NCBI RefSeq assembly: GCF_003265705.1
Contig: NW_020313168.1
Location: forward strand, 4,967,862-5,031,861
DNA: 64,000 bases
Direction of reading: 5' to 3'
From: Callorhinus ursinus
Lineage: Eukaryota > Chordata > Mammalia > Carnivora > Otariidae
Below the pieces are notes generated by a model. That model saw nothing but the letters and a program-made list of their open reading frames with translations. It searched no databases and was not told the origin of the DNA. Position numbers and translations under genes: made by a program. Each line of letters starts with the position of its first letter. Position 1 is the first letter of the stretch. Shown piece by piece: positions 54,730 to 55,135 of the stretch.

Positions 54730-55135
54730 TGAGTGCCCTCCTGTGACTCCCCCTGACTTGGCCCACATAGGAGGAGGTGAGCCTGAATGACCCATTCCTG
54801 CCCAGAGGCGCAGGCCCCAGCTTCTCGGGAACTCTTGCAGTGGGACAGATGCCTGTGGCTGCACCCAGCCTTGCTCCCATACGTGAAGGACAGGTGAGGG
54901 CAGAACATTCCTGGAAGGGACGGGGTCCCTTTCATCCTTGAAGTTCCTGACAGCTGGGGGCTGGGGTATTTCACAGGCTTCGGAGGTCTAAGACCCTGGA
55001 TTGCCTGCTGGAGAATATACCGTCCCACCTACTGCTCACTCCTGCGGAGGGCTCTGTTTCAAGGGCGGGGAGGGGGGTGCAAAGCGGCCCTGCCCTTCTA
55101 GGTGACGCCCTACCCGGTTACACCAGAGGCCCTGG
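54730..55135 (+). pseudogene. Broken duplicate of ST6GALNAC1 exons 7-8 (and possibly 9)
   Basis: This is a DNA-level copy that keeps introns. Similarity begins in intron 6 (CTTGGCCCACAT, then GGAGGTGA and GACCCATT). It continues through an exon-7-like block (54,808-54,893), which reads LQWDRCLWLHPALLPYVKD where the gene has LQLDRYLLLHPDVIRYMKN. The AG|GTGAGGGCAGAAC donor region, an 83 bp intron (93 bp in the gene) and an exon-8-like block from 54,977 follow. The exon 7 copy lacks a net four bases and the exon 8 copy a net two bases before CCGTCCCACC, then has a larger loss inside motif S, so it cannot encode an active enzyme. After CTTCTAG at 55,101, the bases GTGACGCCCTAC resemble the start of exon 9 (VSAYGF). 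That last part is uncertain. It lies just before the ST6GALNAC2 CpG island on the same strand. Confidence 0.88.

What the first reader, a model, noticed from the sequence alone, without database searches (positions are those of the whole stretch)
54730..55135. A third, broken ST6GALNAC1-like copy between the two sialyltransferase genes
Bases from intron 6 through exon 8 of ST6GALNAC1 (32.53-32.85 kb) recur here in order, with introns of similar length (83 against 93 bp), and a weaker exon-9-like start follows. Intron similarity shows a DNA-level duplication, not a retrocopy. The protein reading resembles ST6GALNAC1 (LQxDRxLxLHP...Y.K.R) more than ST6GALNAC2. Frame-changing deletions make it dead. 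It sits about 0.7 kb before the ST6GALNAC2 start codon, so it may mark how the tandem pair arose, or a later partial duplication whose end became the ST6GALNAC2 upstream region.
Basis: partly seen in the sequence, partly recalled or inferred. Interest (0 to 1): 0.75.

Follow-up and report, generated by a model that had tools for sequence, protein, structure and literature searches.

The report
Dead fragment copied from ST6GALNAC1
A roughly 310-base piece of the sialyltransferase gene ST6GALNAC1 was copied long ago to a spot just upstream of its neighbour ST6GALNAC2, where it has decayed; it is real but ordinary genome debris and most likely does not record how the gene pair arose.

Summary
The core observation holds. 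Window 54739-55045 aligns to ST6GALNAC1 32511-32827 (late intron 6, exon 7, intron 7, most of exon 8) at 74% identity, E 1.5e-53. Intron sequence matches as well as exon, so the copy was made from DNA. Genome searches with the fragment and with the parent each returned only these two places. The animal is probably a pinniped. The exon-9-like start is not supported: 915 of 1000 shuffles score as well, and simulated exon 9 copies of this divergence stand out clearly. The frame is broken and no constraint shows. It most likely does not mark the origin of the tandem pair: a thrush protein model carries an ST6GALNAC1-like half followed by an ST6GALNAC2-like half, so the pair appears older than the bird-mammal split, and beyond exons the two genes share no match better than E 0.001, while the fragment's introns agree with ST6GALNAC1 at 119 of 146 ungapped sites. 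A rough CanSINE yardstick suggests carnivoran age; no DNA of other species was available, and a short protein tree could not place the fragment. Verdict: an old, local, partial duplication, now a pseudogene fragment; low interest.

The parts
54739..54807 (+). copy of the later part of ST6GALNAC1 intron 6 (parent 32511-32573)
   Evidence: 50 of 63 ungapped sites identical
54808..54893 (+). copy of ST6GALNAC1 exon 7 (parent 32574-32663) with a frame-changing 4-bp gap
   Evidence: 69 of 86 ungapped sites identical
54894..54976 (+). copy of ST6GALNAC1 intron 7, 83 bp (parent 32664-32756, 93 bp)
   Evidence: 69 of 83 ungapped sites identical
54977..55045 (+). copy of about the first 70 bases of ST6GALNAC1 exon 8 (parent 32757-32827), with small gaps; supported homology ends here
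   Evidence: 53 of 68 ungapped sites identical; right extension no better than shuffles
32511..32827 (+). parent block inside ST6GALNAC1 (late intron 6 to mid exon 8)
30081..33293 (+). ST6GALNAC1 exons 2-9 (30081-30753, 31211-31379, 31526-31697, 31899-32037, 32299-32402, 32574-32663, 32757-32856, 33102-33293), joined frame open to the final stop
   Evidence: splice sites set by eye, exon 1 not located
55825..55949 (+). coding part of ST6GALNAC2 exon 1; the gene runs beyond the window end
   Evidence: later exons found in L003/L004

Best explanation
A one-off local duplication copied about 310-320 bp of ST6GALNAC1 DNA (late intron 6 to mid exon 8) some 22 kb downstream in the same orientation. 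It landed just upstream of the ST6GALNAC2 CpG island. With one and a half exons and no sign of the rest of a gene, it was probably dead on arrival and has drifted, gaining frame-changing indels. Shown: source, DNA-level origin, present limits, frame damage, and only two places found in this genome. Inferred: age (carnivoran era, in the line to this probable pinniped), a repair- or template-switch-type mechanism, and lack of function.
For: Significant collinear alignment over exon and intron alike. Only two genomic matches, found from either side. Flanks 54400-54738 and 55046-55800 carry no detectable trace of the neighbouring exons 6 and 9, although simulated copies of similar divergence score far above what is seen. 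The left flank 54420-54740 matched only itself in the genome. Exon divergence (K2P 0.23, 0.26) is not lower than intron divergence (0.24, 0.19), and mismatches fall on codon positions 6/7/4 in exon 7 and 6/3/6 in exon 8. The projected copy peptide differs from ST6GALNAC1 at 18 of 49 comparable positions; 11 of these 18 are invariant in the 28 other mammalian sequences tallied (Leptonychotes and the 3 birds not in the tally). Non-CpG intron K2P 0.169 (95% 0.106-0.251), about 0.085 per lineage, lies between my younger CanSINE group (median 0.047, 22 copies) and my older one (median 0.114, 17 copies).
Against: The copy peptide keeps Leu-Leu (19 of 28 others have Leu at each of the two sites) where pinniped ST6GALNAC1 has Val-Ile, and it matches camel and whale (33 of 49) slightly better than the window's own ST6GALNAC1 (31 of 49). 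This hints at an age before pinnipeds, perhaps before Carnivora. The 64-column tree cannot place the copy: AU tests rejected none of five placements, including copy with ST6GALNAC2 (p 0.52) and copy outside placentals (p 0.55). No orthologous DNA of other species was available. The SINE groups were cut by divergence itself, so that yardstick is partly circular and is inflated by subfamily structure.
Confidence: 0.85

Rival explanations
1. The fragment is a relic of the event that created the ST6GALNAC1-ST6GALNAC2 tandem pair.
For: It lies between the two genes in the same orientation. The protein tree does not reject grouping the copy with ST6GALNAC2 or outside placental ST6GALNAC1.
Against: A thrush protein model (P0002) matches ST6GALNAC1 best at residues 208-510 and ST6GALNAC2 best at 623-916, which suggests the pair already stood in tandem before birds and mammals split. 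In ST6GALNAC1 31100-33300 against ST6GALNAC2, the four strongest matches (E 5.1e-8 or better) are exons 4, 5, 8 and 9; the remaining rows have E 0.001 or worse. The fragment's introns still match ST6GALNAC1 well.
Confidence: 0.02
2. Remnant of a once larger or complete third gene copy whose other exons were deleted.
For: Indels in the fragment show some loss; the edges could be deletion edges.
Against: In tblastn of exons 2-9 the only other rows between the two genes have E above 4, and the only blastn match from ST6GALNAC1 exons 2-9 is the block. Neighbouring exons 6 and 9 are absent right at both edges. Nothing left to see is not proof that nothing was there.
Confidence: 0.1
3. Retrotransposed piece of unspliced pre-mRNA.
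For: Intron retention alone does not exclude unspliced RNA; the interval is rich in SINEs.
Against: No poly-A after 55045, no exact shared word of 7-12 bases near the two edges, and the copy landed near its parent in the same orientation.
Confidence: 0.03
4. The fragment has been taken up by ST6GALNAC2 as an upstream exon or regulatory element.
For: It lies 0.78 kb before the ST6GALNAC2 ATG and keeps AG/GT dinucleotides at both ends of the exon 7 copy and AG before the exon 8 copy (read).
Against: Keeping those three sites is not unlikely by chance at this divergence (inference); divergence is even across exon and intron; the block lies outside the CpG-island-like stretch; no Rfam match in 54000-56400. 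None of this tests expression.
Confidence: 0.03

Closest known systems
Unprocessed (duplicated) pseudogene fragments, a common kind beside gene families (general knowledge)
   Same: Intron-bearing partial copy near its parent, frame broken, no sign of constraint
   Different: Only about 310 bp, one and a half exons, ending inside exon 8
ST6GALNAC2P1 and ST6GALNAC4P1, human sialyltransferase pseudogenes named in PMC10225777 (passages seen)
   Same: Dead relatives of ST6GALNAC genes
   Different: The paper puts them on human chromosomes 2 and 13 and says they could be retrotransposed or remnants of an ancestral gene; this one lies between ST6GALNAC1 and ST6GALNAC2 and keeps introns

Membership tests
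Unprocessed pseudogene fragment of ST6GALNAC1 | Significant DNA homology to the parent including introns | tested here: met
Unprocessed pseudogene fragment of ST6GALNAC1 | Reading frame disrupted | tested here: met
   4-bp gap in exon 7 copy, net 2-bp gap in exon 8 copy
Unprocessed pseudogene fragment of ST6GALNAC1 | No purifying selection on the coding part | tested here: inconclusive
   Points that way: exons not more conserved than introns; 11 of 18 changes hit residues invariant in 28 others; but no outgroup DNA, so no formal dN/dS test
Unprocessed pseudogene fragment of ST6GALNAC1 | Not expressed as a functional product | not testable with these tools
   no expression data held
Retrocopy (processed pseudogene) | Introns removed, poly-A tail, target-site duplication | tested here: not met
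   introns 6 (part) and 7 present; no exact shared word of 7-12 bases at the edges; no tail
Interspersed repeat | Many copies in the genome | tested here: not met
   two matches genome-wide at E up to 0.001; the tool skips very common words

The most novel reading that the evidence does not exclude
The copied ST6GALNAC1 block was later put to use by ST6GALNAC2, as an upstream exon or distal promoter element, in the carnivoran line that includes this animal.
Probability: 0.03. Interest if true: 0.4.

Novelty: new member of a known kind. Interest (0 to 1): 0.12.

Why it matters
Little beyond annotation: it is a clean example of a small local partial duplication, could serve as a phylogenetic marker once its presence in other carnivorans is mapped, and warns against reading fragments between tandem genes as relics of the founding duplication.

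Tried and rejected
Exon-9-like start: tested with shuffles and simulated copies, rejected. Extension to the left into exon 6: rejected. Origin from ST6GALNAC2: the block's best matches within that gene have E 2.3, the longest being 37 bases at exon 7, and ST6GALNAC2 intron 7 is about 1.1 kb (positions). Tree of exons 7-8 (35 rows, 64 columns): drawn with the copy inside placental ST6GALNAC1 (fork 98/97), but AU tests rejected none of the five placements tried, so it is given no weight. Dating from residues: Leu-Leu against Val-Ile suggests an age before pinnipeds, on two sites only. In one search, 2 of 38 rows printed blank because the motif used was absent. Rfam: no match. Solved structures: the best hit of the parent's exon 7-9 peptide was ST6GALNAC2, 6apj. 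Papers: ST6GALNAC1 with pseudogene and carnivore, 0; with pinniped, 0; with pseudogene and gene duplication, 3, of which 2 listed. Passages only were seen of PMC10225777, PMC5811610 and PMC4084570; the searches were otherwise seen as listings.

Full report
What is there. The window lies in a 2.67-Gb genome at G000:C253:4967862-5031861. Over residues 225-545 of the query its ST6GALNAC1 protein is 96% identical to that of Leptonychotes weddellii and 99% to an unnamed protein, so the animal is probably a pinniped. ST6GALNAC1 exons 2-9 lie at 30081-33293 with an open frame. ST6GALNAC2 starts at 55825 and continues past the window; its later exons were found in the adjoining 20 kb.

The observation. 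Window 54739-55045 aligns to 32511-32827 with 74.4% identity over 324 columns, E 1.5e-53; a stricter scoring gives 76.0% over 296 columns. No shuffle of 1000 reached the score. By part: intron 6 50 of 63, exon 7 69 of 86, intron 7 69 of 83, exon 8 53 of 68 ungapped sites identical. Of 419 blastn rows between window 1-34000 and 34001-64000, 408 fall at places hit ten or more times, which where I looked are CanSINEs. Eleven do not: one near 5.4 kb (E 2e-14), six near 12.9 kb, three near 19.9 kb, and this block, which is the strongest of the eleven and the only row from ST6GALNAC1 exons 2-9. The other three places were not identified.

Limits. Beyond the edges nothing is detectable. Exon 6 plus early intron 6 scores 9 in the left flank (148 of 200 shuffles as good; 200 simulated copies at least 46). 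Late exon 8 to exon 9 scores 14 in the right flank (83 of 200; at least 171), and exon 9 alone 8 (200 of 200; at least 57) (mononucleotide shuffles, copies simulated with 20% substitutions and 3% indels).

Copy number. Genome-wide DNA searches with the fragment and with the parent each returned the same two places only. The left flank matched only itself. The search with the right flank did not complete. The tool warns that its DNA search skips very common words and that no match does not show rarity, so a weak additional copy could be missed.

Death. The exon 7 copy has a 4-bp gap and the exon 8 copy a net 2-bp gap. Mismatches fall on all codon positions, and exons are no better kept than introns. 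Eleven of 18 peptide differences from ST6GALNAC1 fall on residues invariant in the 28 other mammals tallied; three of these (positions 50-52) are next to an alignment gap and may be misaligned. There was no outgroup DNA for a formal selection test.

Age against the gene pair. The thrush model P0002 has an ST6GALNAC1-like half followed by an ST6GALNAC2-like half, and the hamster model P0003 likewise. These look like fused annotations of neighbouring genes (inference), which places the tandem pair before the bird-mammal split. The four strongest DNA matches between the two genes are exons; the rest have E 0.001 or worse. The fragment, whose introns still agree with ST6GALNAC1, is therefore far younger than the pair. 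The 64-column protein tree neither supports nor contradicts this: none of five placements was rejected.

Age in absolute terms. Non-CpG intron divergence is 0.169 (95% 0.106-0.251), 0.085 per lineage. CanSINEs are unique to Carnivora, and the oldest feliform subfamily is put at roughly 45-60 million years (PMC4084570, passages seen). I split the CanSINEs of this region by divergence into three sets with median divergence 0.047 (22 copies), 0.114 (17) and 0.216 (8) from their own consensus. On that scale the duplication belongs to carnivoran time, but the sets were cut by divergence itself, so the scale is rough. Against a young age, two residues of the copy agree with the commoner mammalian state rather than the pinniped one, which suggests at least a pre-pinniped age. 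Both can be true for a duplication in the caniform stem, but neither is strong.

Mechanism. Same orientation, 22 kb apart, no exact shared word of 7-12 bases at the edges and no tail: a replication- or repair-linked local duplication is the simplest account, by inference. The copy lies outside the CpG-island-like stretch of ST6GALNAC2, and nothing found here suggests function; expression could not be tested.

Noticed in passing
window 59180-59279: A 100-N assembly gap in ST6GALNAC2 intron 1, with a poly-A run just to the left and a pure poly-G run of about 30 bases on the right; the poly-G may be a sequencing artefact.
   Followed up: no
window 5363-5515 and 36663-36821: A single 161-column match at 70% (E 2e-14) lying outside the CanSINE places; identity unknown, perhaps an old repeat. 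Genome search for it did not complete.
   Followed up: partly
window 12931-13062 and 19886-20023: Two further places with six and three matches in 34-64 kb, outside the places hit ten or more times.
   Followed up: no
window 54250-54410: Sequence that looks like a LINE-1 ORF2 fragment just left of the block (recognised from memory, not searched).
   Followed up: no
window 1-64000 and L003-L004: 48 CanSINE copies collected in 84 kb, 47 scored, spanning a wide range of divergence.
   Followed up: partly
proteins P0002, P0003, P0110: Database protein models that hold two sialyltransferase domains, apparently fusing neighbouring ST6GALNAC1 and ST6GALNAC2 (in the carp model P0110 the assignment is unclear).
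   Followed up: partly
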